64,000 nucleotides of DNA from Echinostoma caproni (lineage: Eukaryota; Platyhelminthes; Trematoda; Plagiorchiida; Echinostomatidae): contig UZAN01039456.1 of the NCBI GenBank assembly GCA_900618425.1, forward strand, positions 43,733 to 107,732, given 5' to 3'. The notes beneath the pieces are model-generated. The model had not been told where the DNA came from, searched no databases, and saw nothing but the letters and a program-made list of their open reading frames with translations. Positions 13,707 to 63,060 of the stretch are shown here, in pieces; position 1 is the stretch's first letter; every line of letters starts with the position of its first letter. The position numbers and the translations under genes are program-made.

Positions 13707-15071
13707 ATGTGCACAGTACAAACAGCGGCTAAGTTGTCACGTGATAACTCTGTTCACGTGACTCAAAGTCAACAGTTTAACCTTGTTCAATTTAAATTCA
13801 GCGGCGGATCCGCGAACTTCATGTCTATCGTTAGATGTGTGAATCTATTTACTGCATTATGTTCGATCATTGCTATTTGTCTCCAGCTGTCTGGACTAAT
13901 TGTGTTAGCAAACACAAACAACAGCAATATCACAACCCCCACCACAACCAGCAACAACACCAACACCAACATTAATATCAACAAAAGAAGTACACACACT
14001 TCCAAACCATGTTGCATGCGTGGACGGAATATTTGTGAAGGACCAAAGATAACTATAGTTGGAGAATCAACCGCCTGTGATGCGTTTGTTAAAAATCTAT
14101 CGGCTGTAGATTATCTGGAATTCCGTGTTGATAAGCATCATCCTCTAACAGAGAATCAGTACACAATTCTCATAATTGATATAGACTTTCCGATACCTCA
14201 AAATCAGTTTGAAAACGCCTCAATTATTTATGCAGCTGTCAACGTTCCCGGGAACTGTCTGAAAAACTCTCGTGGCTGTCGGCCTAAAATCTTCCACTGG
14301 TATCGAATAGAATGTGAGAATCAGTATGACCATATTGATCGACTGCATTTGTTGCTTCTGCAACAATTCATTGAGCTGGGTGTGAATCAGTTAAGACACC
14401 TAACTCGCGGTTCCTTCCCTTATACGGAATTGTACAAAGGCACATTTTGGTACACGAAACCGATTCGATGCCATCGTTATTTGTGGCATCGGTGCTTACA
14501 TCATCCCCATTACGACCAATATATGAGTTCCACTTTTAGCGGTCGATTTGTCCAAATTCCAGATTACGATGATAACGATGCGAATCAATTAAACGATAAA
14601 CTTCTGGAGAAATTTAAAAGTGTAGTTATTACAAGTAGGATGATTGAATATGAGAAAAATACATGCTTTCTGAGGCAAATTATAGACAATTTGCCGTTAG
14701 AAACATCGCTGGAAGACTCATTTGACTTTGATATCGAAAAATGTTTAAATAAAAGCATGATATGGAAAGAAATCTATGCGCGACTACAGAACCGGACTAT
14801 TTCGACCTCAATAAAACGCATGCTTAAGAAGTGGTACATCTCTGCTATGCAGCAATATGTTCATTGGAGAATGTTTCAAAAATTTACCACAGCATACGGA
14901 TCGATTGCAGAGGAGGATGAATCTCATAGTATGGACATTCGATACCAAAAAGAGTCACAGCTGACCAGACGAATGATAGCTCGTTTAGAGCTCTTGTTCA
15001 GAGTGTTTTGGGAATTAAATTCTCCTTGGTTTCCCCCGCTGAATCATTTTCGTGAAATAGGTTTCTTCTGA
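13707..15071 (+). CDS. Orphan single-exon secretory or type II membrane protein
   Basis: This is the longest open frame in the window: 454 codons from the first ATG, or 416 from the ATG at 13821, which I prefer. That internal Met (residue 39) is followed at once by a hydrophobic segment, LFTALCSIIAICLQLSGLIV (residues 48-66), typical of a signal anchor or uncleaved signal peptide. The 38 residues before it look like translated 5' UTR. Then come an Asn/Thr-rich low-complexity stalk (about 69-98), a Cys-containing ectodomain (CC at 102-103 and further Cys), a strand followed by a DID motif in ILIIDIDFPIP, a His/Tyr/Trp-rich stretch (HRYLWHRCLHHPHYDQY), and a basic helical C-terminus. Several N-glycosylation sequons are present (NIT, NLS, NAS, NKS, NRT). 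I do not recognise the family. Signal anchor, stalk and DxD-like motif together recall Golgi glycosyltransferases, but no known transferase signature is visible, so no function is assigned. The absence of introns in such a genome suggests a retrogene or a fast-evolving lineage-specific gene. Confidence 0.7.
   Translation: MCTVQTAAKLSRDNSVHVTQSQQFNLVQFKFSGGSANFMSIVRCVNLFTALCSIIAICLQLSGLIVLANTNNSNITTPTTTSNNTNTNININKRSTHTSKPCCMRGRNICEGPKITIVGESTACDAFVKNLSAVDYLEFRVDKHHPLTENQYTILIIDIDFPIPQNQFENASIIYAAVNVPGNCLKNSRGCRPKIFHWYRIECENQYDHIDRLHLLLLQQFIELGVNQLRHLTRGSFPYTELYKGTFWYTKPIRCHRYLWHRCLHHPHYDQYMSSTFSGRFVQIPDYDDNDANQLNDKLLEKFKSVVITSRMIEYEKNTCFLRQIIDNLPLETSLEDSFDFDIEKCLNKSMIWKEIYARLQNRTISTSIKRMLKKWYISAMQQYVHWRMFQKFTTAYGSIAEEDESHSMDIRYQKESQLTRRMIARLELLFRVFWELNSPWFPPLNHFREIGFF
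13738..13760. promoter_or_regulatory. Paired CACGTG palindromes upstream of probable start
   Basis: Two CACGTG hexamers (13738-13743 and 13755-13760) sit 17 bases apart and about 60-80 bases upstream of the ATG at 13821. CACGTG is the classic E-box core for bHLH factors. If they are regulatory they would favour 13821 as the true start, because otherwise they lie inside the coding frame. The function is inferred. Confidence 0.25.
13909..13995 (+). repeat. Low-complexity AAC/ACC tract inside the orphan CDS
   Basis: A run of degenerate AAC, ACC and ATC codons encodes the Asn/Thr-rich stalk after the membrane segment. It looks like an expanded trinucleotide repeat and probably varies in length between individuals or species. 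Confidence 0.6.
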
Positions 15072-20794: not shown

Positions 20795-21017
20795 TTATTG
20801 GATATTCTTCAGAATTGGTAAACTCGCGTAGTTGGCTATTCCACACATGTTGAAGAAGCCTCTAGCAATCTTTACGTATCCTTCTTCGCCATAATCGGGA
20901 CCGAGTGAAGTTTTTGCCAACCAGTAATCGTGGAATGCAGCCCATTTATAGCCCACGAGCAAAATCGATAGATTGGGTGAATCACGTTTGCATTTGAAGC
21001 TGTAATAAATTCCGCCA
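20795..21017 (-). other. Exon 4: C-terminal domain with lost His and Asn
   Basis: The acceptor TTTTTGCAG|TGG at 21018/21017 completes a Gly codon in phase 2 and gives GGGIYYSFKC. Leu277 is encoded by CTA at 20969-20971 where His is expected, and Thr297 by ACT at 20909-20911 where Asn is expected. The Trp of NSWG is Leu and the Gly of VGYG is Lys. The terminal block IARGFFNMCGIANYASLPIL is well conserved. Confidence 0.88.
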
Positions 21018-24000
21018 CTGCAAAAACACAGGGACAAAGAGAGAGTGAGAGACAGATAGAAAGAGGGAGATATGTTAGAGATACCTAATGAAAATCCGTT
21101 GTGGCGAGAAAACAAACAATAACGTGCCATTGGTTTCGTTTCATGACTCATGTAGCCGTAACTTTAATTTACTGAGCCAGCAAATGCCTGTCGTATGACT
21201 TGTGTTTTGAATAAAACATCAGAGACCTTTGAATATGAACCATCTGCAATAAAACACATGTATCTCCTTAAGGTGAACCTTTTCCTTTGTTTAAAAAAAG
21301 AAGATGGATGTATTCAATATATGTTTTTTAACACGATAAACTTCATAACTGGCATTCAGCCAAATTTGACATGGTTTTTAGCATCTAACCCGCAAAACAC
21401 TCCTTCAAACCATCTCGTGATTTTCTTTAATATATATCTATACATATGATAACCGGATACGTATGCCTGGAGCATAGCAAGAATATCAAAACCTGTTGCA
21501 CTTGCGTGAGAATTTTGTCTAGTTGTCCAGATATTAATTATTGCAACATATATCTATCTTACAGTTCCGTAATGTATTGTATCGCTCCCAGAATAGATCA
21601 TATTACGCACACCGATTGATGCGTACGAGAATGAAGCCGGTGGTCATGGCGACTGAGTGTCGTTAATCACCATCAGCCGTAATAATCCGTACATCGCGTG
21701 TATAAATTTCGCTACGTTTGACTCAGTTCTACGCTGTGGTTTGTGTCCCTGTCAATTCCTTGATTTGATCCTCCTTGAGGATGGATTAACTGTACCGTTG
21801 ATCAAACAAATACCGAAAGAAAACATCGTCTCTTCACCACCACCTGGGGACATTATATCCTAGTGAGAATGGACGAACCCCTTTCGAAAATCGACCTCGA
21901 TCGGCTGGGTAAGGAATCGAACCATGTTAATATTGATTGAAAAATCGATCGTCATTCTCAGACATGGATGTTGGAATGACTCATTGCATGGGTGGATTCA
22001 TTCTAGGCCCTCAATAACCTAGTGAGTAGATTCCATTGAGGCCGAGGTGCATTGGAATGACCGTTTCCTTTGAACCAAACGCACATGTCTACCTGTGTGA
22101 CATTAAAAGACAATTGACAAGATATTTAACAATTTTACAAGGATATAGCGGTAGAATCAACGATATTTCCCCTGAATGGCAAATTAAAATTTGAACTCAT
22201 TCACCAGCGAACAGAAATTACATTTTTCTCTATACTTCCGGATTGAGCATTGCATTCTATTCACGATGCCAATGTGAACGACCTGTCACCTACAGCTTCG
22301 CGATTTGTTATCAACTTTGTCACATAGAACCTCAAGCCCGTAACATCATTTCTGATCCTCATCGCATCTTTTTACAGCCCGAATACATATGTGCGATCCC
22401 CATAGTTCAGTGAGTGAGACAATTGGCCTATACGGTCAGTGACAGGTGATGACATGCTTCGGTTTTTTTTCCTGAATTTCGGTGCATCTATGCATAATAG
22501 TATACCCTTTTGATATTGCTTTCTGAACCCGTTCTTTGAATTGATAAACCATCACTTTGACACTTTGGATCCGCTCCCTTTCAGCGCACCTCATTGGTCA
22601 ATTGAGCACACGTTTTTCTACCCCCTAATTGACCATCTGTCTTCCCACGCTCTTTCTGTGCTGAAATGATCTGTCTTGCATCCTATCGAGCTCGTTGACG
22701 GACGTCAATTCCGTGAAGCCGTGCTATTTGCGCGAGATTGCTAAGCTGTATGTATTCGCGCAATTACCAAAGCTTACAACAGTAACTGCAACCAAGGACG
22801 AGTTTGGTGCTTGCACGGTATTCCGAGCGATGTAATATTCATTACGTGACAAGAGTATCACAAAATGCACAAAATGCAAACGCCGGTAATCTCTCGTCTG
22901 GTTGAGGGATTCCAAGTGGCGCAAACGGCGGTAAATGATCCAATCAGATCACAAAGAGGTTTAGAGGAAATTTAATAGTTTATATTCACGGATGAGGGAT
23001 ACGGCAATGTGAAACGATGGAGCAACCGCACTGTAGTTGCTGCGGCATTGACGATAGCTAAATTTCCCAAACTGACCACAGTCACTATGACCTCGGCTGA
23101 AGGGAAAAGGTGAACAGTTAAAGGGGTGTGAAATCACTGAATCATGCATGCCTTACTCACTATGGTCATGTTTGCTGATTGAGTAGCGATCGGTGTGATC
23201 ATGACTTCGTCCGCTTAGATCTTAGCAGTAGCTTGTTTGAACAGTAGAGGAAGACGTATGAGGGTGTGATGTAAAACCAATGCTGTTTGTCTCCTTGCAA
23301 TTTTTTCATCATACAACTGTACGAACAAAGGAGTGCGCAGGCGAATCGTTTAGGTTTTCGGGGAGGGGCATGATTAGGGTGTGACTGTGAGACAACTGGA
23401 CTAATGACAATGAATATTAAAGAATTATTAAAAAAGGAACCAAAGTTCACCACAATGATATCGATCGTAGTTTCTCTAACTACGATCAAGAACGAGTGTG
23501 GTGCTTTATCTGTACTCCGAGTGATACGCTTTTCATTGCATGGATCATAGACCTATGCGAATAGTAATGTTTCTGAGAGGCTGCTGTTGGTGATATTGAG
23601 GTGAACTTTGGTGACTGAGCCGTTTTACATCAATGGCCTAACAACCACAACCAGTTATACTGTAGTTCACCCATCCGTGGCTCCATAATCAATGGTACTG
23701 AACAAAACAGATGGCAGTCGATTCGTTCGATAAAAAGAAATATATAGTTAAAAGTGGATGCATGGTGTCAAACAAAGAAGAGCTGCATAGAGAATGTCAA
23801 AAATTACATATTACAGTGGACATTTATCACAAGCTCAAGGTCATTATGAGGATTGAGCTAAAAAGTAGTGACTACTGTGGGGACACTAAGAATCAACTGT
23901 AGTAATCTTTCGGCAGAAATGCAAGATAATTCGACGGAAACCAACATCAGTATTTTCTATATTGGATTTCGTTCACAAAGACAGTTACAGCCAGCCAAGT

Positions 24001-27000
24001 AGACCAGCTAATACATGGCATGATGTTCACATCACTACAATACCTAAAGAACACAAAGCGGTGGTTTCGGTCACATGTAAACATCTGTCTACTGCAAATG
24101 CGGCTGCCTGTCTTATGCAGTCCATTTTATCCATGGTTGACCAAAACACATGACTGTTCACGTTTGCTTTTGGGGCTATACAAAGCCTTTGACTCCGTTG
24201 ATAGAAGCACCTTACAAGAATAAAATCTTCTGCTATATATGTTAAACTGAATGCATGACGATTGTACTGACTGACGCCTTCCCAAATGTATTCGATCTTC
24301 CACGGTCAGCGTACATACACGAAGGCATTTTTACGTCTAAGTACTTCTATGACGTAATGGTAGTGCATCCAAAAATACCTCATAAATCAACAGCCTCCAA
24401 TCAACCACCAGCTCTTTTTCTGAGCCGTTCGCTGGCGTTAACCTCTCCCTAAGCTCAACCAAATGCACCGAAATTTCGTTTTCCATTATTCGTAGGTCAT
24501 TCACATCTTCGGGATCACCTGGCTCCAGCATCTTGCATAGCAACTCAAACACTGAAAGGTCACAGCACTTAGAATACCCTGGTTGTTTTCTATCTGCTGA
24601 CCTCCAAATTATCTTCTATCACCCACAATAAATTTAATCCTTTACATATTTGCATCACAACTTATTTGATAAATTGTTATTATTCAAAGCCAGTGGTCAA
24701 TATACATTGGTGCCTGTCGAACATTAGGCCTAATTCACCCGGCTAACGTTATGCAGTGAGAAAGTGCTGTGTTATGAGTATATACGACTTCAGCGATCAA
24801 GACCATTCAATTCGGTGTCCAAACCCAGAAAAGTAGATTTTCGAAAAATCTTCCAAGAATTTTCCTACCGTTGCGAATAAAGACTAAGAACAATCTCAAG
24901 GCAACGCAATTTTTATTACTTAGCAGATTATTTTTCAAACTACTGTTTATGCATTGGGATCGCATGATGGATCCGGAGTCGCAAACCACTGAATAAACCA
25001 ATATATATACATATATATTTATAATCTGGTTTTTCGGCAAGCGGAGTGCACATGTCACGACCGGAAAGTGCTCCTGATTTGTCAGATGCGTATTTTTATG
25101 CACTTTCGTAGTTCAACTATGCATGTTTTAACTCGGTGTATCCTCCTCTATTTGTGCGTAGAACGCTCCCGGTCAGTTAGCTGATATTTATAGGGGAAAT
25201 TTGTGGTGCCGGGTTTGGGAGACAAAGAGCAGACATCTGTATTTGACAGATTACCTTTGGGTCACTTCTTATGAAATAACCACGTTGCATGTCTGCAAAG
25301 TTCACGTTGGTGTTCGCGTTGGAAGTTCGGAAGCAAACGTTTGATTATCAGTCGAGTTGAAAATTGATATGTTTTGTTTGGCTCGAGGTTACATATATTA
25401 AATTCTTTAAAATAATTATTAGTCAGTAGAAGCTGCACGTTTGAGGGCTTTATGGTTGATAGCTTTTCACTTACATTCAGCCAGCAGGAACAGAATGTCA
25501 ACTTGTAGTTCGCAGACAAACGTTTGATCTGGTTTTCCATATTGTTCTGTTGCGAGATAAGCTCGTGGTTTCTTATTTCCTCAGTTATTTCTGTGGGATT
25601 CCGACTTCCCATTATGTATCATAATGTAAGACGGAGCTATTCACGTTGTTGTCCACGAATCTGTTGTTCTTTCTTGTTCTATCATAGTCATGGTTTGTTC
25701 AATAATGTTCTGAGTAAAACCCTTTCATCATCTTGATAAAATATAAGGCTGGGATATTTTTCTTGTTTTATAAACCCAGACAATTAAGTTTACCGACCGT
25801 CAACTGTCACAATCTGGAGACATGTAGAAAATCATTTAAGTCCGTTTAGTTTTTTTCTAATATTGCGCTTAAGCTTACCCGTAAAGCATAAAGTCCTCAT
25901 CTGCATCTATTTCCGCAACTGTTGGACCGTGCAAACCGACCAATGCCTTCAGTTCTTCTTCACTGCCCGAATAAACACCGTAGAATAGTTTGACCATGGC
26001 CAAACCTTTGGCTTCATCCGCTTCACATTTACCATCCTAGGGAAAGTTTAAAAAGAGATTGTAAATGAAAAAGCATCACCGTCTGATATAGTTTGTATCC
26101 TACTTTGCCAACATGCGCAATGTGATCACTTGTTAATCAGTTGTTTCATAATCGGTCAAGTTTCAACGGACAGTCCGATTTTATTTGCAAAATATCATGC
26201 TGCGGTGCTCAAGTACGGATTTGTATGCTTTAGGTGGTCTCATGAAACATGACACATTTGAAAGAATTCAATCAAATCAGATACAATTGAGTATGCAAAA
26301 TGAAGTGTTGTGCACAGTGCAATACGCCTTGTAATTGGTGTTACTTACTTCTGCTTCATCCACCATGGTACTTTTTTACTTACTTGGAAATATACATTTA
26401 AATGAGTCTTAATCTAACAGTCTTTGGCTGCCTATCCATAAACCGGATAGTAAAATTGTGTATAAATGTGGCAAAAATCCAGAAACACGCCACACACCCC
26501 AAATCAAACGTAATTTTACATAATAAGCGGTACTAAGATTGGGTAATACACTATAACACTCTGAGTGATGTTTTTGATTTTCTTTAAGCAGTAAGTGTTT
26601 AAACTTAAACTATACAAGTAATAATCGAAATCCTGTATCATGACTGTCACGTTGCCGATCTCATACACATCTATCGGTAGCTGTAGATGAGATGCATTTA
26701 TTCCGATTTTTATCTCCAATTGCAATTTTGTTAGTTCTCCGGTATCGCCGTTTGAATTTGCGCGACCTTCAGTGAGGCGATAAAATTTTTAGTAGTTCAA
26801 AAGTTACAGTTCAAAATAGAAAAACTATTCAATGCAAACCAGTTTGGAAGTTCATTCTTTCTAATATTTGATTTTTGTTTCATAAAGATTTTAATTCTGG
26901 TCAACACACGTATTCTAAATAAGTTATATTTTTTCATTCAGTTCACAGTAAATAAGCGGATTAATACATTTTTTTAGATTAACTAAATTGGCAAGGTATG

Positions 27001-30000
27001 TGGCTACGGAGTATTCCGGTAACATTAGACATAGTGAAAGAGCTACAAATATATTCTAAAAAGCTTAAACGTTGACCTTCGAAAGTTAACCTTGAGGTGC
27101 GCAATTCGTTGAACAAACGTTTCTCTAGTGTCACCATGCTCAAACCGGATGAAACATCTAAAACCTTTTGGCATATAGTTGAATCCGAGAAGCAACTTAT
27201 TCGTGAGGCGTATAAATCTGACAACTCAGTTCCTGACTTGCGCAAGTGGTTTGTTGAGACCATAAGCAACCGTCGTCGAAATCGAGAAATCCAAAACACT
27301 TTATTGGCATTCGATCAATAGAAGCAAAAACAAAAGGGAATATTAGTACAGATGTGGGGCAATACCGTATGCCATCTTTGGAATGAAGCTCCAAACACTA
27401 TGCGGTGGGAGGAACAAAAGCCATGAAAGCCAAGGTGCTGCAGGAGTTTGATCAATATCTGTATGATTACTTGTATCTTTTCATCCTAACTCTGTGTCCC
27501 GTTTGCTGTTCACAATTCTAGTTAAATGATGCTACTGACGAACGTGTCAGAGATATAGAAATCCATATGTCTCTCATAATATTGTCTATCAAACCAAAAC
27601 TGTTTAGTAGTACAATCAGTAAGATACTTTTTCTGTAATCTTCTCGTTTTAAGATAAACACATCCATAAGTTGCCCCTATTTTTCATCGGAACTGTTTCA
27701 TGAATAGTTCCAGGTGATTTCAACCACAACTCATCTCTGTCACTTCCTTTCTCGCCTACTTTATATGCGAATAACTCCTTTGTGAGAGTAACGCACGTGT
27801 ACGGTTTTTAGCCGGCAAGGTCGGTGAACAGTGTATATCAGTTCGGACCAGATACCATTATCGTGGACGCCCAAGTTTGGATATTTATCACTTGAATGGA
27901 ATGTACACGAGTCTATCTCTGAACAACGTGAGTGTGTCAGTTTTATCGATCAATTTTTTTCGACATAAATGAATCAAAATTTATTTGAAACTAAATGTTA
28001 GGACTAAATTCAGTCTATGCACATTATGTTCGTCCACCGAAATATCATTTAACTGAAATTAGTCTCAAACGTGGCCACGGCTTATTTAAAAAATCCAAGA
28101 GATTTTGATTTTTCAATCTATTTTCCGACTGATCTTCTGTGGATATTTTTTCTGAATCTTTCTTGAATAGTTCAAACATTGTATTTTCAACGAAACATGA
28201 TAGATTCACCCCGAACAACTATTGTAAATAGAGAAAATCCCTTGCCTGGAACGGAACGCATCCATGTTCCAAAGGATACCAACCATGATTGAATTTCAAA
28301 CCAAACAAATCAATTTTTGCTGCAATTGGCGATTTCGTGTTAAACACTCTTGTTGTAAATCTCATTTTACAGTAAAATGTAGCAAGCACATGAAGATGTA
28401 AGGAATTGAGCACAACGAACCTCTCCAGAATTCGGGTGATGCTAATTTCCCCTCCTCAATGCCCACTAATTTCGATATGTATCTATTTCAAACCAGTTCT
28501 CATCCACCTAAAATCAAACCATTTTTCAGTTAACCTTCTCTGATTGCCAAGCTTCATCAGTTCTTGTTCTAATGTTTCCCAAATGTTTTCTTATTCGTTT
28601 TTCACAACTATTTTATCCATATCCTAGATACTTGCTCAATAAGTAATTGTGGTGCAACGTTCCGAATAGATCCAACACAAGGTACTTTGAACCAAAGGAA
28701 ATAAACCTACTGTTTTTAAATAAATATAAACTCCAGAGTGCCGGATTAGAGACTNNNNNNACTTGACACGCTTCTGTTGTTTTCCTTGAACAGCCATGTT
28801 TGTCAATTATTTATCAGTATCTTCTTGTCATTTATCAATCCCCCAGTCTGATCCGTTGTAAGCTATCTATCGTAGAAGGGTCATTTTACAATGCCACACT
28901 TTCTTCTGAATCTTGGAACGCTTTTTTCGCCTGACCAAACGTCGTCTGACCCCACTTTCAATGGGTGCATACTTGTCTTTCATAACATCCCTTCACACAC
29001 ATGATTTATCTGCTNGTTATTGTTTAATAATTTAAAAACCTCTATATCTAGTATCGATCTTTCCATTTTCCCGCTTTTCTGCTATCGATAAACGATGTTT
29101 GCGCGGGACATTAAAGGAGGCGTGGAAAAATAAGATAATTCTTGTCAGACTTACTTCTCTGTTGTACTCATATTATGTTTGTTTTAATTGAATATACGAG
29201 CCAGGAACAACGATAATCAATCTCATCCTGAAGCAATAGTCTGTCAGTTTGTTCAAATGTACGCCCTAAATTAGTGAGCTGATGACCAAAATAATTTATG
29301 AAGTATTTCACTTTCGATTATTCTTTGACTTTACTAACAGAACAGAAGATGAGACCACCGACGCTTCACAAATGTGGAAACCGATTTCCATCCAAAACTT
29401 GAATTGATCATTTTGAGTTGGTGCTATTGCTTCAGGACTTCGCTACCTCTCCCCGTATGAAGAAAAATTCATTTTGAGCCGGAAACAGAAAACTGGTTAA
29501 TAACAACTTTAAAGTTATCAAGAGTGAACCCAGCGTGATTGTTTCTCTCTCTCTATATATAAATATATATATATATTTATAGAGAGAGAGACTACACTCA
29601 GCTCATTCCTTTTTAAGGGATCTGAGCGTTTTTTGGAGGCACACAGTGAAAGCTTGTCAGCTCCTTAATATAAAAGCAATATAAACACACACATTAAATC
29701 GTTATTATATTATAAAATACGCATTATCACTAAAACGTAAACAGCACACTTACTTTCCCTGTGTACGGGTAACTTTCTTCACTCTCAATTGGGTTCTTAT
29801 TTAAATACCGGTAAGCGTTCTCCGCACTTCCTCCATTGCATCCATGATTGTGATATGGTGTGGAGCAGTCAATCAGTTGTTGTGCGGAAATAGTGATAAG
29901 TTTTTTACTTGCCAAAGCGTACTGACATTCAATGGCCCCGGCCGTGGCAAATGCCCAGCTGGATTGACACTTGCCCTACACATTCGGTACGGGAAGAGGG

Positions 30001-30493
30001 AACACGCCAAGAATAATTGTTTAAAATTGAAAGCGGGTTGATTGGTTGATGATTTGCAATTCAAATTTTTTTAATCATCTGTACAGCTCACCTGTGTCTT
30101 CACTCCGGTTACACACTTCTCGTGAACCCAATCCATGGCGTCTGGCGGTAACTTTCCGACCGTTTTAAACGGAATTTGCACTGGATCAGAGGGGATTTGT
30201 TCGGGTCTCCTCGAGTAAAGATACGTTTGATTGAACTCAGCCCATGTCATATCCGCAAACTGGTTCAACCGTAAGTAGTAACTCTCCAGTCCTTGCTCGT
30301 ATCGTTTGTTATGCTTCGCCACACGTCTTGCGTTTGCCAACCAAACATTCTTTCTTTGAAAATCATGATCTTCGTTATTGTATGTCTTGCCGTATTTCAA
30401 TTTCCATTCCTCCCAAGACCTTGGGCCGCCCAGATAATCTGTGGCGAGAGTAGTGTGCAGCAAGAGTAAAACAATAGCACTGTGCAGCAACAT
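20795..30493 (-). CDS. Cathepsin L-like cysteine peptidase homologue, catalytically dead (4 exons)
   Basis: Exons 30493-30092, 29975-29754, 26036-25879 and 21017-20795 total 1005 nt and encode 334 residues plus a stop, the usual length for prepro-cathepsin L. Residues 1-17 are a signal peptide. An I29 prodomain follows, with a degenerate ERFNIN helix (R-K-N-V-W, N, V, HN at about 47-62) and LNQFAD at 76-81; the usual Gly of the GxNxFxD motif is Arg. The mature start is near LPPDAMDW (115-122). Gln134, the oxyanion-hole residue, is kept, but the active-site motif reads GKCQSSWAF, putting Ser140 in place of the nucleophile Cys25. The catalytic His is Leu277 (PNLSILLVGY) and the catalytic Asn is Thr297 (KTSLG for KNSWG). 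Disulfide cysteines remain in GKC, IDC, HGCNGG, DGKCE, FKC and NMCGIA. Family knowledge says such a protein cannot hydrolyse peptides by the papain mechanism. I infer a secreted pseudoprotease, perhaps a decoy, inhibitor trap or binding protein. Intact frame, splice sites and disulfides argue against a pseudogene. Confidence 0.88.
22750..22865. repeat. Diverged local repeat, unit A
   Basis: The segment around ACCAAAGCTTACAACAGTAA and GACGAGTTTGGTGCTTGCAC, then ATTCCGAGCGATG, resembles 23440-23560 in the same order. A shorter related block lies at 23058-23095. The repeats are old and their class is unknown. Confidence 0.35.
23440..23560. repeat. Diverged local repeat, unit C, with small hairpin
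   Basis: It parallels 22750-22865 (AACGAGTGTGGTGCTTTATC, then ACTCCGAGTGATAC). An 8-bp inverted repeat GATCGTAG/CTACGATC at 23463-23470 and 23480-23487 is specific to this copy. Confidence 0.35.
24100..24225 (+). mobile_element. RTE-like reverse transcriptase scrap
   Basis: The plus frame near 24164-24220 reads LLGLYKAFDSVDRSTLQE, matching RT motif A of LINEs (F-D-x-KAFDSVDR-x-LW). The neighbouring frame is broken and nothing else of the element is clear. It lies inside intron 3 of the cathepsin-like gene, in the opposite orientation. Confidence 0.5.
24379..24551 (-). other. Orphan candidate exon in intron 3
   Basis: The minus strand has an acceptor-like GACCTTTCAG, an open frame of 57 codons (FELLCKMLEPGDPEDVNDL, then ELRERLTPANGSEKELVVDW) and a GAG|GTATTT donor-like end. 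The acidic/amphipathic composition looks like real protein. It does not fit the cathepsin frame, which is complete without it. A nested gene, a captured pseudogene piece or transposon ORF are all possible. I recognise no family. Confidence 0.25.
25475..25612 (-). other. Orphan candidate first exon in intron 3
   Basis: A minus-strand ATG at 25612 opens 46 codons of hydrophilic, Asn/Gln/Glu-rich sequence (MGSRNPTEITEEIRNHELIS) and ends at AAT|GTAAGT, a consensus donor, in phase 0. The frame stays open for another 70 codons past the donor. No family is recognised. It does not join in phase to the candidate exon at 24379-24551. Confidence 0.25.
25879..26036 (-). other. Exon 3: central R-domain strand region
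   Basis: The acceptor CCTAG|GAT at 26037/26036 starts DGKCEADEAKGLAM in frame with exon 2. The exon continues through YSGSEEELKALVGLHGPT to DEDFMLYG and stops at GG|GTAAGC in phase 2. It matches the canonical cathepsin L block SGSE-ELK-LV-GP-DFM-Y. This exon is too short to stand out as an ORF and was found by extending the family alignment. Confidence 0.85.
27089..27321 (+). other. Short charged open frame in intron 2, unknown
   Basis: The plus frame preceded by an AG (CCTTGAG|GTGCG) encodes about 75 residues rich in Lys, Arg, Glu and Asp (KPDETSKTFWHIVESEKQL, then SNRRRNREIQNTLLAFDQ). The opposite strand is also open for 106 codons. The plus reading looks more protein-like. It could be an exon or an element remnant; the family is unknown. 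Confidence 0.2.
27812..27927 (+). other. Orphan candidate exon in intron 2
   Basis: The plus strand shows a pyrimidine-poor but plausible acceptor GGTTTTTAG, an open frame (GKVGEQCISVRTRYHYRGRP, then SLDIYHLNGMYTSLSLNN) and a GTGAGTG donor at 27928. It runs opposite to the cathepsin-like gene. The family is not recognised. Confidence 0.2.
29541..29593. repeat. CT/TA/GA near-perfect palindrome
   Basis: A CT tract, then TATATATAAATATATAT, then TTTATA and a GA tract form a self-complementary segment of about 53 bases inside intron 2. A long hairpin or cruciform is expected from the sequence. Confidence 0.75.
29754..29975 (-). other. Exon 2: active-site Ser region and GCNGG loop
   Basis: The acceptor TGTAG|GGC at 29976/29975 restores GKCQSSWAF in frame. 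The exon encodes 74 residues, including IECQYALASKK, the IDCS and HGCNGGSAENAYRYL blocks, and YPYTGK. It ends at AAA|GTAAGT in phase 0. Ser140 is encoded by AGC at 29958-29960, one base from the Cys codon TGC. Confidence 0.88.
30092..30493 (-). other. Exon 1: signal peptide, prodomain, start of mature domain
   Basis: The ATG complement lies at 30491-30493. The exon encodes 134 residues and ends at CAG|GTGAGC in phase 0, immediately after the oxyanion-hole Gln of VKTQ. A prodomain sequon NQT lies at residues 88-90. Intron 1 is short, 116 bp (29976-30091). Confidence 0.88.
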
Positions 30494-31799: not shown

Positions 31800-34157
31800 G
31801 ATCAATCATCGTTGACTCAATCAACGTTGTCTACGATATAATGCGATTCCCGAATCCCTCCGCATCATTCCTCCGGATATATCTGTCCGCTCCCAAAGGG
31901 CTGCTTCGAAAGCTTCACGCACATTCCTACGACAACGGATTCACGACTGTGCTGTAATTATACACCCACTGTGTTTCAGAATTCGAAATCTGAATGAATA
32001 TTTAAATAATTTACTGCTAACTCCCATTCTCCTTGATGTTACAAAAATAATCGAACAAAGAAGGGCACACGCCTTCGAATCATGCCAATCACGACAAAAA
32101 ACGAAAGTTTTCAAAACTGGTGATAGAAACAGTAACCAAAAAAAACAAACACCCGACAATAACTTGTTATCGATCCGAAAAAGATCGCTAGAAACCTATC
32201 AATCAGAGTTCTGACGCCAATAGAATCACAACTACTCCAGAGGGGTCTCAATTTCAACCTCCACAGAAAATCCTTGACGGTGCAAGAATTTATCCTCGCT
32301 TTAGAACTGGCCTTATTCAAAATTCCAGAAAACAACGCCAACCAAGCACGTTTGGGGATATGTAACATTCTCAAGAACTAACAACCGATTGCTCCCAACG
32401 TCACATCAGATGAAGGAAAAGCATTGGCAACCTTAAAACGATATTCTTCAATTCACATCACAAAAGCCGACNCGACAAGAGAAACGTCACGGTCATCCTA
32501 GATATAGCAGATTACGAATCAAAAGTTTTGGAACACCATAAAAATGGACCGTATGAAAGAATTGAAGACAAAACGGTGAATGTCATTTTCAACAAAACAC
32601 AAGCGTGTTCAGGCACATACCTATCAAGCTTGAAAGACAAATATGGTAAACCGTTTTGGGTTTTCATTGGCACAGACAGGGAAGATTTACGGTCTACCAA
32701 AAATACATAAACCGGACATACCCATTCGCCCCATTCTAGACTACATACAATGTGGAACTCATAAATTAACGAAATACCTCCGTGATCTGTTAAAACCGTA
32801 TCAAAAAATAGTGGTAAGTCACAGCATTGATGCATTTGAGTTTTCTTGTATTTTGTAAAACACTAAACTTGAAAGTGACGAGGTTGTCGTCAGGTTTGAT
32901 GTAGTTTCTCTTTACACAACTGTTCCCATAAAAGAAAGTTTAGATTTCCTACATTCTTTGCTGACATCTGATGCCACACAAGGACAGCGAACTTCTTTAA
33001 CCCCATCAGAAATTATTACTGGTGTAGAAATTTGTCTAATGCCAACTTTATTTACTTTCAAACAAAATTTAATCGGAAAATCAGTGGTGTTGTTATGGGA
33101 TCTCCCATCTATCCCATTGTAGCCAACCTCTTTTTCATTCAGTCGAATCAAAGGCACTCCCCAGTTTGATATACCATCACGCTTATAAGTAGGGTATGTA
33201 GACGATATTTTTGTCTGTATTAAGTCAAAACACACACATGCGTTTCTTAATTGTCTAAACAAACGGCGCAGTTCCATCAATTTCACAATGGAGTCAGAGG
33301 ATGTGAGCAGTGTCATCAGTTTTCTAGACTGTCACCTCAGGGTGAACAACTCAAGCAAATTTACCACCAACGTTCACAGAAAATCGATACATTCGGATAA
33401 ACTTTTACATCTTGAATCAGCTCATCCGAAATGTGTAAAACGAACTCTTATCTCCTTTCTGGCTGACAGAGTCAAAAAGCTATGTAATGAAGACAATAAC
33501 CGACAAATGGAAAGGAAACGCCTCAAAAAAGTGCTAGAATAAATATTTATTCACCACTTCTGGTAAGACGCCCGCTAGAAGCGAACGCACCAGTGATACA
33601 ACCTAATAACAAAAAGGACCGTGTGGCCTCTGTAGGCATTCCATATAGATTAGGCACTTCAGAAGCAATCAGAAAGATTCTCGGTGATTTCAACATATAC
33701 ACATTCTTTCGGGTTGACAACACTGAAACGCCATCTCATGAAATCCAAAGATCCGGTCGAACTGAAAAATGAAAACAACTGCACTTACCAAATCATTTGT
33801 AAAGAATTCCCCTCAGAATACATTGGTCAAACCAGTAGACAACGTAAGACAACAATAATAGAACATAAGAGAAAAGAAAAACATCGGCCTACGGACAAAG
33901 CAACTCTGGCAAAACTAGAACGAGACTCAGCGATCGCTCTTCACGCCATGGCCGAAGGTCACACCATTGACTACGACAACCCGAAAAAACTCCAACTGGA
34001 ATTTCGAAGATGCACCGAAAGCTTGTATGCCGAGGCTTTGGCCATTAACACCTACTCTGCATGTGTCAACAGAAACGACGGAATCGAGAGCCCCAGCATT
34101 TGGACTACCCTAACGTCCCTAACACGTAATCACGATAAAGGTCACAGTGCCACTTGA
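31800..34157 (+). mobile_element. Degenerate Penelope-like element: RT and GIY-YIG endonuclease
   Basis: Read across frames, the segment gives an N-terminal region (IPESLRIIPPDISVRSQRA, about 31846-31910), a pre-RT block (ITKAD..T, then IADYESKVLEHHK near 32450-32545), RT motifs (YGLPKIHKPDIPIRPIL at 32690-32740; VRFDVVSLYTTVPIKESL near 32895-32950; GSPIS-PIVANLFF near 33100-33140; YVDDIFVCIK near 33197-33230) and a C-terminal GIY-YIG domain (YQIICKEFPSEYIGQTSR at about 33790-33840, then IIEHKRKEKH). The RT catalytic DD is still readable, but several stops and frameshifts (for example near 32380, 32850, 33120 and 33540) make it inactive. This order defines the class. It differs in family from the relic at 575-1194. 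Confidence 0.88.
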
Positions 34158-59490: not shown

Positions 59491-59842
59491 GTAATCTGTC
59501 AAAGTCAAAGTCAAAGTTTTATTATGGGAAATACTTACAAGCGGTTGCTTTTCTGGTCCCATAGGATTTGGCACAGATGAATCGGTTCACAGTTCATACG
59601 AAGTAGATGAATGTCACAATTTGTCCTTTTTCCGTGCGCTTCTACGGATGTTGAAATTTAAGACTTTTCAAAACTTCATCTGGTTTGTGCTTGAATGAAT
59701 CAATTGTGGGCACAGAGACAACGTGTGGTGGTAGAGAATTCCAAGTAATACATACTCTGAAGGCCAATGAATGACGCCGGCATTCTAGTCGGCATTTTTG
59801 GAGCACTAATTTGCATGAGTGCCCCCGCAGGTGAGTGTTGGG

Positions 59843-60592
59843 CTACAAAGAAAAAAGTGGACGACATGGATGGTCTGGGTTCTGCATTATTTGGTACACC
59901 AAGATCAAGTCTCCTCGAATGCAGCGATACTGTGTGGAGTACAGTTGCAGTAATTCCAGTCTTTCCGCATAACTCTTGGAATGCAGTCCTTTGACCGTTT
60001 TGGTAGCCATTCTTTGTGGACGTTCCAGAATCTCTTGATCGCGTCGCAGCCATGGATTCCATGCTTGAATGGCGTACTCAGTGTAGGGTCGAATGTAGGC
60101 TAATAACAATCGTGGGAACGGCGTAGGTTCAAATTTGCCAAATACTCGTTTTAGCAAACCAACATGTCTTACAGCGATAGACAATGCCCGGGAGCAGTTT
60201 AAAGAACAGCTTAGGTCGTGTTGAACAATGACACCGAGATCCTTCTCATTCGAGACGTACGGAAGTTGTTGATCTCCTAGAAAATACGGAAACCGAGTTT
60301 TGTGTCGAATGGATACGATCGTACATTTTGATGCATTAAATTTCATTTCATTTTCGATCGACCATTGATAGGCAGCATTAAGTGTTCTTTGGGGTTCCAG
60401 CGAGTCCTCTGGTTTTGTCACCGTTTTCCATATTTTTGCATCGTCCGCAAACATTAATGTACGTGGACCGAGAATGTCCGCTTGGTCTATTATGAAAACA
60501 AGGAAAAGTTGAGGACCCAGCACGGATCCCTGTGGAACTCCTCGTGATATGCTGATGGGATCAGGAAGTGAACCAGAAACCCGAACTTTCAT
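59843..60592 (-). pseudogene. CR1-like reverse transcriptase C-terminal frame (249 codons)
   Basis: This is the longest uninterrupted part of the LINE. It covers RT motifs B (SRGVPQGSVLGPQLF) and C (FADDAKI, with both aspartates intact), then the thumb (EKDLGVIVQHDLS) and post-RT region (SYAERLELLQLYS). It begins after a frame break relative to the motif A frame at 60640-60867 and stops before the terminal WNSLP block, so it is not a complete ORF. Confidence 0.85.
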
Positions 60593-61871
60593 GGTGCGTC
60601 GTCGAAGAAATTCTTCTATTCAGCCCAGTACAAGTCCAACTACAAGTTTTGTAGTTTCCTCAGCAGTATTTTGTGGTTCAGTCGATCGAATGCTTTGGAG
60701 AAGTGGAGGTACACGACGTCCACTGCATCACCGTGATCAGCTGTTTTTGTCCACTCTTCTCGGGCCAGAAGCAGGTTAGTGGTACAAGATCGCCTGCGAC
60801 GAAACCCATGTTGAGCCGGGGATTTTTCCAAGTGATTCATCACATTGTCTGCCGCCATGGATTCCATGACTTTGGATAATACGGGGAGGAGAGTAACGGG
60901 GCGGTAGTCAGCTGGGTCATTACGAAAACCGCCCTTGTATATCGGAGAGATTATCCCTTGTTTTCATGTTTTTGGGAGCGCAGTTTTGTTGAACATTTGT
61001 TGAAATAGTTTGCTTCGTGGTTGGGCTAAGTTACTCGCCAGGTTGATAAGGGTTTGTGGGTGGATATTATCTACCCCTGGAAAGGAGTTCCTTTTCAAAC
61101 ACTGCAGTTTCGATCCAACGATTTCTGGGGGAATATTAATTGTGGAGAGCACTGGTTGTGATCTATCCTCAAGTAACAGAGGCAGTCGTAGTCCGGTGTT
61201 CGCAGGTGCGGTGAACACTTAAGCGTACTGACGTTTTAGCATTTCAGCTGCCTCCTTTGTTGTGACTGAAACACGCTCTGTCACCCTTAACGCTGGAACA
61301 CCAGACTTAACTTTTCTGGTGGCATTTATGTGTTTGTACAACAGCTTAGAATTTGACATGAACTTGCGCATGAGCATTCCTTGGTGTATTAACTTGTCTT
61401 CTCGCACCAACTTGCTGCAATGGTTTCCGAGTTGACAGTAGGTATACCATGTGTTGTGGCAAGGAGATCGTTTATAAGCTCTCCATGAGGTATTCCTCTG
61501 CGAAATCCACTTTTTTTCCGACTTCGAATTGCTGATCTTTGACCAGTTGAGTAGGTGATGCGCTTGGTCTTCGTCGCGCCTTTCACCATTTCCGTCAGGT
61601 GGTTTGTAAATTCTTCCCAGAATACAAGGAGATTACACTGTTTGTTGGAAAATTTCCATTGGAAATCTCTCGCCAAAAAAAGAAGTTTAGTGTAGTCAAC
61701 AAACATACAGGAGCTAACCGTAGAATTGTGCGGTACAGAAGCATAGCGAATGTAGTCAAACGTCAGCACAGCGTGATCACTACATCCTAATGGAGTTGCG
61801 GTGGAAATCGTTTCCCCCATCGGTTCCTCGTTAGCTAACACCAGGTCCGAAACCGATGGTGACTGGTTGGC

Positions 61872-62258
61872 TCAAAACCTCGTGGGCTCCTTCACAAAAC
61901 TGTAAAGTGGATAGGATTCCATGAGCTGTGCAAGTTTCCTCTCAAACGGTTGTAGAGAGGTCGCTGATTTAGCTAGTTTAGGGCAATTGAAGTCTCCCAT
62001 AATGAGAACATGTGTGAACTTCAGTGACAGTATGTGATACATGGTTTGCAATAATGTCTCATTGGCTGAGTCTGTGGATGAGGGAGAGCGGTACACCATA
62101 CCGATCAAGCCGATATCGCGCTGCGACAGTCGCACTTTGCACCATAAAGAGTCAGAAACTGCAGCAGGATAATCAATTACTTCGCGTTGAAGTTTGCTGC
62201 TAAAGTCGAATAACACCCCACCACCCCTTGTAGGTCGATCGCATCTGAGCAGAGTCAT
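61872..62258 (-). pseudogene. CR1-like APE endonuclease frame (128 codons)
   Basis: The frame shows RCDRPTRGGGVLFDF, GLIGMVYRSPSSTD and LIMGDFNCPKL, the metal- and DNA-binding blocks of the APE-type LINE endonuclease. The catalytic SDHAVL block lies in the next frame (61389-61841) after a stop at 61872. Confidence 0.8.
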
Positions 62259-63060
62259 GCCGAGTAAGCTTAACTCTGAATCTAGAATGTCGATTGTCAG
62301 CCAGGTTTCGGTGACTGCAATAATGTCCCATTGACCAGCTTGGCAACGCAGTTCTACCTCTGAAAATTTGCTGAGAAAACCTTTTTTCTAGAAACAATGC
62401 AGTTGGTGGCGAAGCAGAAACTACTCGGGGAGTAGGGGGTTAGTTGAGCCGACCGTATAGTGGTCGGCTAAGGGAAGTTTTTTGGAAGAATAGTTTTCTG
62501 GGACAGATCTGCCAGTTTCGAGAAGGAACACAAAGTCTGTCGGAACCCAGCTTGATTCGAGGTGATATTTTCTGCCTGTGAAACACTTTTGGTCCCTGTG
62601 TTGTACATCGGTCTCAACCTCAGTTCTGCTGGGCCCTTAATCTTGTTGTCGTACCAAAACTGCAAGACAGTCGTAGCCATTTCTGGTGTGCCTAGAGTTA
62701 TTTTCAAAATTCTCGGGCCGTCTCTGCGGTAGTTAGGAGAACTGGGGAGACGGCAAACTGCTGTAGTCGTGATCTGGCGACATCCGATGAGATCTTGAAT
62801 GAACCGCCACTTGTTATAGGCGTCCCTGTTAGTTTGTACTTAAATGGTTTGCCTTCATTGAAGTGTTTGATAAAACACAACCAATCGGGTGGACTGCTTC
62901 GGTATAACCAATTGGCCTCTAAGTTCCCTTTCATTGTAATATGTATATGGGACTGGGTGGGAGTAGTAGACTGCCTAATCCTTGACTCAGCTATGGGTAG
63001 GGGTTGAACGCGGGGTGCCATAGGCAGAAAAGAGTTTTCGGAGTTGTTTTACTGTTGAAT

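What the first reader, a model, noticed from the sequence alone, without database searches (positions are those of the whole stretch)
20795..30493. Cathepsin L homologue with the entire catalytic triad replaced but fold residues preserved
Four exons join in phase into an intact 334-residue prepro-cathepsin L. Seen in sequence: nucleophile Cys to Ser140 (AGC), catalytic His to Leu277 (CTA), catalytic Asn to Thr297 (ACT), and Trp of NSWG to Leu. Also seen: retained signal peptide, I29 prodomain, oxyanion Gln134, GCNGG loop and paired disulfide cysteines. Silicatein and mammalian testin keep part of the triad; losing all three while keeping the frame over 9.7 kb points to a selected non-proteolytic role, such as inhibitor sponge, decoy antigen or carrier. 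In flukes, where secreted cathepsins dominate host interaction, this would be a distinctive pseudoenzyme lineage.
Basis: partly seen in the sequence, partly recalled or inferred. Interest (0 to 1): 0.92.

Follow-up and report, generated by a model that had tools for sequence, protein, structure and literature searches.

The report
Dead cathepsin L gene, kept intact
An intestinal fluke carries an intact gene for a secreted protein that looks like a digestive protease but has lost the residues needed to cut other proteins, so it probably does a job other than cutting.

Summary
On the minus strand, four exons with GT-AG borders encode an unbroken 334-residue prepro-cathepsin L with Ser140, Leu277, Thr297 and Leu299 at the nucleophile, base, Asn and Trp positions. 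The identical protein is on record for Echinostoma caproni. Exon 3 matches only itself in the assembly; the exon plan agrees with four unbroken paralogues; 48 of 51 other invariants are kept while 4 of 4 active-site ones are lost. Best reading: a secreted pseudoprotease retained by selection. Expression, proteomics and orthologue dN/dS could not be tested. It is not unique: five of 172 relatives lack the whole triad too (two Schistosoma, one Drosophila, two unnamed rows), and E. caproni has a second intact dead cathepsin L plus one broken by stops. Parasite precedents are in print (SMIPP-Cs with the same Cys-to-Ser and His-to-Leu, TrCB1.6, EnCL2). Against a cystatin sponge, both cleft Trp and Gly138 are gone and the lost His site is an N-glycosylation sequon. 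Whether fluke and schistosome cases share one origin is unresolved.

The parts
30092..30493 (-). Exon 1: signal peptide, I29 prodomain, start of mature domain to Gln134 (phase 0)
30443..30493 (-). Signal peptide, approximate (hydrophobic residues 1-17)
   Evidence: by eye on the sequence; no program used
30092..30094 (-). Codon of the retained oxyanion Gln134
29754..29975 (-). Exon 2 (222 nt, same length in the four paralogues joined): replaced nucleophile, GCNGG loop
29958..29960 (-). Codon of Ser140 at the nucleophile position
25879..26036 (-). Exon 3 (158 nt, same length in the four paralogues joined), ends in phase 2
20795..21017 (-). Exon 4: replaced base, Asn and Trp; stop codon
20966..20974 (-). 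N276-L277-S278: N-glycosylation sequon at the lost His site
20969..20971 (-). Codon of Leu277 at the base position
20909..20911 (-). Codon of Thr297 at the Asn position
20903..20905 (-). Codon of Leu299 at the Trp position

Best explanation
An intron-bearing duplicate of an echinostomatoid secreted cathepsin L that lost all catalysis and was then kept as a papain-fold protein. Shown: intact frame and splice sites, I29 prodomain, disulfide frame and family signature; loss of nucleophile, base, Asn and the neighbouring Trp; exon plan of its paralogues. Inferred: it is secreted like its active siblings, cannot cut peptides or process itself, and either stays a zymogen or is trimmed in trans by sibling cathepsins or legumain (as shown for Trichobilharzia TrCB1.6). 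Its most likely action is binding of a host or parasite protein through the outer surface of the mature domain, as scabies SMIPP-Cs do with fibrin, rather than through the reworked cleft.
For: Frame, splice sites and residues; identical deposited protein; Pfam I29 and C1. Active-site invariants lost 4 of 4 while 48 of 51 others are kept. Exon 2 = 222 nt, exon 3 = 158 nt, phases 0/0/2 in the window gene and in 4 of 4 paralogues joined, with splice sites picked by hand at GT/AG. Groups with Fasciola, Fasciolopsis and Echinostoma cathepsin L (98/85; 87/87). Neutral drift does not easily leave such a frame: random substitutions give a stop after a median of 14 and within 59 in 95% of runs (part 1; indels not modelled), while by my count the four active-site codons alone need at least seven changes in 12 bases (P 4.7e-7, 1.3e-5 and 2.1e-4 for 40, 65 and 100 random changes). 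Omega = 1 on its whole branch is rejected (LR 27.3). A sibling shows open decay: C8500 has Gly at the nucleophile and three stops in exon 1. Parasite precedents: SMIPP-Cs (PMC5956821 passages; PMC7815109 abstract), TrCB1.6 (PMC7054455 passages), SERA5 (PMC4671257 passages).
Against: No transcript, peptide or orthologue seen. One draft assembly. Its end branch is long (1.5 changes per column, median of the set 0.45), which also fits relaxed constraint. Support for its place among echinostomatoid enzymes falls to 79/54 under LG+F+G4 with 30 rows and is weak for prodomain or mature domain alone. Synonymous sites are saturated (branch lengths at the bound), so omega is not reliable; the branch includes the time when the gene was still active; and its omega does not differ significantly from the other branches (LR 3.2). 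No structure model could be made.
Confidence: 0.6

Rival explanations
1. A recently silenced, unexpressed pseudogene that has not yet met a stop codon.
For: Long end branch; no orthologue and no expression evidence; the family does produce broken copies (C8500).
Against: At least seven base changes in the four active-site codons (my count) with no stop or frameshift in 1,005 bases; 4 of 4 active-site invariants hit but 48 of 51 others kept; exons 2 and 3 keep exact length.
Confidence: 0.2
2. A decoy that binds cystatins or other cleft-directed inhibitors and so protects the active cathepsins.
For: Inactive TrCB1.6 of another fluke forms complexes with chicken cystatin (PMC7054455 passages).
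Against: [quoted passage not shown] Here Gly138, Trp299 and Trp303 positions, which I recall as lining the cleft where cystatin loops sit (not from a call), are Gln, Leu and Tyr, and N276-L-S is a sequon there.
Confidence: 0.12
3. Part of one old digenean clade of triad-less cathepsins that also holds the Schistosoma pair P0157/P0158, rather than an independent loss.
For: At the 30 positions where the window gene leaves a 70% consensus of 30 active enzymes, S. japonicum P0158 has the same residue at 7 and S. mekongi P0157 at 6 (133, 140, 144, 165, 169, 299 in both); nine active rows printed share 0-2, C1558 shares 2. AU does not reject one clade: p 0.42, 0.23.
Against: The tree puts each with its own family's active enzymes (window gene 98/85; Schistosoma pair 88/52, inside a schistosome group of 96/91). 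Several shared residues recur in P0156, which the tree places elsewhere, or singly in active enzymes, as convergence would give. Prodomain columns oppose one clade by 8.2 log units, mature columns favour it by 3.4.
Confidence: 0.2
4. A serine-type hydrolase: Ser140 acts as nucleophile, as proposed for Cys-to-Ser cathepsins.
For: Ser at the nucleophile position and an intact oxyanion Gln; a Cys-to-Ser change need not always abolish activity (PMC5840727 passage).
Against: No base: Leu, Thr and Leu stand at the His, Asn and Trp positions.
Confidence: 0.02
5. Assembly or base-calling error.
For: Draft assembly with N bases in intron 2 (28755-28760, 29015).
Against: At least seven errors exactly in four active-site codons would be needed; the exons hold no N; the deposited protein is the same, though it may come from the same assembly.
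Confidence: 0.01

Closest known systems
[quoted passage not shown]
   Same: Papain-family paralogues of active enzymes in a parasite; Cys to Ser in all five, His to Leu in three (PMC5956821 passages); associate with forming fibrin, procoagulant (PMC7815109 abstract).
   Different: SMIPP-Cs are related to mite group-1 allergens, multicopy, and lack a predicted propeptide; this is a fluke cathepsin L with a full prodomain. The state of Asn in SMIPP-Cs was not seen.
Trichobilharzia regenti TrCB1.6
   Same: Inactive paralogue of a fluke cathepsin, highly transcribed; processed in trans; binds chicken cystatin (PMC7054455 passages).
   Different: Cathepsin B; Cys to Gly at the nucleophile, with other changes outside the triad.
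Schistosoma mekongi P0157 and S. japonicum P0158 ('Cathepsin S')
   Same: Fluke cathepsin L-like proteins lacking Cys, His, Asn and Trp (Ser, Glu, Phe, Leu), with other derived residues in common.
   Different: Different residues at the base and Asn positions; sit with schistosome enzymes in the tree.
Eudiplozoon nipponicum EnCL2
   Same: Flatworm cathepsin L with Ser at the nucleophile (PMC5840727 passages).
   Different: Monogenean; only the Cys change in the triad is reported in the passages seen.
Plasmodium falciparum SERA5
   Same: Papain-like domain with Ser at the nucleophile; indispensable but non-enzymatic role (PMC4671257 passages).
   Different: Apicomplexan; the paper marks a His and an Asn at the other triad positions.
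Silicatein; mammalian testin
   Same: Cathepsin L fold; silicatein structures are among the PDB matches.
   Different: Both keep part of the triad (recalled, not tested here).

Membership tests
Cathepsin L family (C1A, L-like) by descent | I29 prodomain plus Peptidase_C1 domain | tested here: met
   58.6 and 203 bits, both above cut-off
Cathepsin L family (C1A, L-like) by descent | Groups with fluke cathepsin L in a tree without the active-site columns | tested here: met
   98/85; 87/87; weaker, 79/54,
Cathepsin L family (C1A, L-like) by descent | Exon plan of the paralogues | tested here: met
   222 and 158 nt exons, phases 0/0/2 in 4 of 4 paralogues joined
Active cathepsin L peptidase | Cys-His-Asn triad | tested here: not met
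   Ser, Leu, Thr
Pseudoprotease (retained inactive paralogue) | Intact frame, catalytic residues lost | tested here: met
Pseudoprotease (retained inactive paralogue) | Expressed, with a non-catalytic role | not testable with these tools
   no reads or peptides held
SMIPP-C | Cys to Ser with His to Leu or Gln | tested here: met
SMIPP-C | No predicted propeptide; multicopy family | tested here: not met
   prodomain present; exon 3 matches only itself in the assembly
Silicatein | Ser-His-Asn triad (recalled) | tested here: not met
   no His, no Asn
TrCB1.6-like cystatin binder | Forms complexes with cystatin after processing | not testable with these tools
   needs protein; cleft changes argue against

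The most novel reading that the evidence does not exclude
Flukes have kept, since before the split of echinostomes and schistosomes, a separate class of secreted cathepsin L-fold proteins without any catalytic residue, with a common rewiring around the old active site (positions 133, 140, 144, 165, 169, 299), serving a non-proteolytic host-facing function; the window gene and the Schistosoma 'Cathepsin S' pair are its two known branches.
Probability: 0.18. Interest if true: 0.72.

Novelty: new member of a known kind. Interest (0 to 1): 0.5.

Why it matters
Secreted cathepsins are main tools of flukes in the host. An intact member with no catalytic residue, beside a second dead member with different replacements in the same worm, would show that part of this arsenal works by binding rather than cutting. 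E. caproni is a laboratory model, so expression, secretion and binding can be tested directly. It also warns that database names such as 'Cathepsin S' or 'Pept_C1 domain-containing protein' in fluke genomes can hide non-enzymes.

Tried and rejected
Searched the window with 11 cathepsin proteins: all hits fall on the four exons and their edges. No tRNA, no Rfam family at gathering score, no NCBIfam match for P0001 or P0158.

Structure prediction could not be run, so nothing is said about the shape of the cleft beyond residues; where residues are placed 'around the active site' this is recalled from the family fold.

Considered and dropped: retrocopy (three introns kept); serine hydrolase (no base); one clade of the window gene with E. 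caproni C1558 (log-likelihood 1.3 lower, AU p 0.36: open, not shown); one clade with P0047 and P0054 (AU p 0.39: open).

Loss of His goes with loss of Trp299 (6 of 6 rows against 6 of 164) and of Asn297 (5 of 6 against 2 of 164). The rows came from searches with this very gene and were not tested as independent lineages; rows with gaps and P0158 were left out (170 of 173 used). Part 2 is not used as evidence.

The homologue searches can miss relatives: Fasciola CL1 scores 288.7 bits, but no Fasciola protein is among the 34; one search listed 120 of 1710. So the absence of an orthologue is weak evidence.

Papers: ten searches. In the listings seen, no title names a triad-less cathepsin L of Echinostoma or Schistosoma; the library is partial and papers beyond the listed rows were not seen. 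The E. caproni secretion paper (PMC4815245 passages) names a cathepsin L spot but not which gene. Passages of PMC7653818, PMC11242924 and PMC6191129 held nothing on inactive cathepsin L. The E. caproni transcriptome paper (Garg 2013) was seen only as a reference.

Correction: an earlier count gave Asp at the base position of C1558; the alignment gives Asn there (Asp is the next residue).
Full report
WHAT IS THERE. The window belongs to the intestinal fluke Echinostoma caproni: the predicted protein is identical over all 334 residues to a deposited, unnamed E. caproni protein on a 173-kb contig, and the window lies in contig C513 of a 426.5-Mb assembly. The gene runs on the minus strand. Its exons are 30493-30092, 29975-29754, 26036-25879 and 21017-20795; all three introns begin GT and end AG; the frame is open from ATG to TAA. 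Pfam gives an I29 prodomain and a Peptidase_C1 domain. Solved relatives include Fasciola cathepsin L1 (288.7 bits, best) and silicatein.

WHAT IS LOST AND KEPT. Against 172 relatives from three searches, 55 columns are at least 90% conserved. The gene leaves 7 of them: the nucleophile (Ser140), base (Leu277), Asn (Thr297), two Trp (Leu299, Tyr303), and positions 163 and 196; 48 are kept, among them Gln134, the six disulfide Cys and the GG of the GCNGG loop. The four active-site columns, chosen because of the finding, are all in the set of 7 (hypergeometric P 1e-4). Twenty-one of the 172 relatives have seven or more departures, so the number alone is not extreme. By my count from the codons, those at 277 and 299 each differ by more than one base from any codon of the usual residue, so these losses are neither single-base errors nor very fresh. 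Two further changes matter for function: Gly138 is Gln, and N276-L277-S278 is a sequon placed at the lost His.

IS IT A PSEUDOGENE? Random substitution of this frame gives a stop after a median of 14 changes and within 59 in 95% of runs (part 1). At least seven changes sit in the 12 active-site bases alone; with 65 random changes over the frame the chance of that is 1.3e-5, with 100 it is 2.1e-4. Exons 2 and 3 are 222 and 158 nt in the window gene and in 4 of 4 paralogues joined, with phases 0, 0 and 2; splice sites were picked by hand at GT/AG. A codon model on six E. caproni genes (306 codons, one topology) rejects omega = 1 on this branch (LR 27.3), but synonymous change is saturated and the branch includes the time before the loss; its omega is not significantly different from that of the others (LR 3.2). 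The end branch is long: 1.5 changes per column against a median of 0.45. Taken together, long neutral decay is unlikely, while relaxed or redirected selection is likely. Expression could not be tested.

THE FAMILY IN THIS WORM. Seven cathepsin L loci in the assembly show both exon 2 and exon 4. Four (C6408, C3713, C3975, C7851) keep Cys, His and Asn. One (C8500) has Gly at the nucleophile and three stops in exon 1. Two are intact but dead: the window gene, and C1558, a 342-residue frame with Glu at the oxyanion position, His at the nucleophile and Asn at the base position, with the usual Asn and Trp kept. Two more loci (C6215, C6654) were seen in part; loci that looked like other C1 groups (for example C4807, C9819) were not counted; the tool's counts are lower bounds. 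The deposited P0047 has no identical match (closest C6408, 68-90% by exon), so the assembly searched may lack some genes. Whether C1558 and the window gene share one loss is open (AU p 0.36).

RELATIVES ELSEWHERE. Of 173 proteins aligned, 6 lack Cys, His and Asn together: the window gene, Drosophila nasuta P0011, Schistosoma P0157 and P0158, and the unnamed rows P0034 and P0156. The six rows without His (Schistosoma counted once; P0165 included, which keeps Asn) have all lost Trp299, 5 of 6 to Leu (rows chosen by similarity to this gene, so not an unbiased sample). The window gene and the Schistosoma pair share derived residues at 133, 140, 144, 165, 169 and 299, mostly around the active site as I recall the fold. 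In the tree, built without the active-site columns, the window gene sits with echinostomatoid cathepsin L (98/85) and the Schistosoma pair with schistosome enzymes (88/52 within 96/91). In one search the window gene stays (87/87) but the pair falls at the midpoint root; with LG+F+G4 the window gene's place has 79/54, and single domains give weak support. One clade for both is not rejected (p 0.42; p 0.23); prodomain columns speak against it by 8.2 log units, mature columns for it by 3.4. I take convergence as likelier. None of the three searches listed a protein above 44% identity other than the gene itself (one search shows 120 of 1710); the Fasciola CL1 chain of the PDB is 46% identical.

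HOW IT PROBABLY WORKS. Secretion is inferred from the signal peptide (by eye) and from the behaviour of fluke cathepsins. With no nucleophile thiol, base or Asn it should not cut or process itself (established chemistry). Trimming in trans is possible, as shown for TrCB1.6 (PMC7054455 passages). Cleft-directed inhibitor capture is less likely here, since the cleft rims are changed and may be glycosylated. The closest tested analogue is the SMIPP-C group, with the same Cys-to-Ser and, in three of five, His-to-Leu (PMC5956821 passages), which associate with forming fibrin and delay fibrinolysis (PMC7815109 abstract). I therefore favour a surface-binding role in the host gut, partner unknown.

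PLACE AMONG KNOWN THINGS. By descent it is a cathepsin L; by its residues it is not a peptidase. It belongs to the known kind of inactive papain-family paralogues of parasites. Complete loss of triad and Trp in a fluke cathepsin L was not named in the listings of the ten paper searches made, in a partial library.

Noticed in passing
G000:C1558 (loci L010, L011): A second intact dead cathepsin L in the same genome, 342 aa, with Glu, His and Asn at the oxyanion, nucleophile and base positions and the usual Asn and Trp kept.
   Followed up: partly
G000:C8500 (locus L016): A cathepsin L copy with Gly at the nucleophile and three in-frame stops in exon 1, a likely true pseudogene.
   Followed up: partly
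P0157, P0158: Schistosoma mekongi and S. japonicum proteins (the latter named 'Cathepsin S') lack all catalytic residues (Ser, Glu, Phe, Leu); 86% alike over 284 columns.
   Followed up: partly
P0011, P0156: Drosophila nasuta 'cathepsin L-like' and an unnamed row also lack the triad and share the K-T-S-L-G stretch with the window gene.
   Followed up: partly
20966-20974: An N-glycosylation sequon lies exactly at the lost catalytic His site.
   Followed up: no
31816-34157 and 754-1194: Open frames that look like Penelope-type element pieces (RT-like and GIY-YIG-like by eye; no Pfam match for the three tested); the first lies about 1.3 kb upstream of the gene.
   Followed up: no
59700-62387: Non-LTR retrotransposon pieces on the minus strand (RVT_1; a weak endonuclease match below cut-off).
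   Followed up: no
13707-15071: Open frame of 454 aa on the plus strand with no Pfam or PDB sequence match.
   Followed up: no
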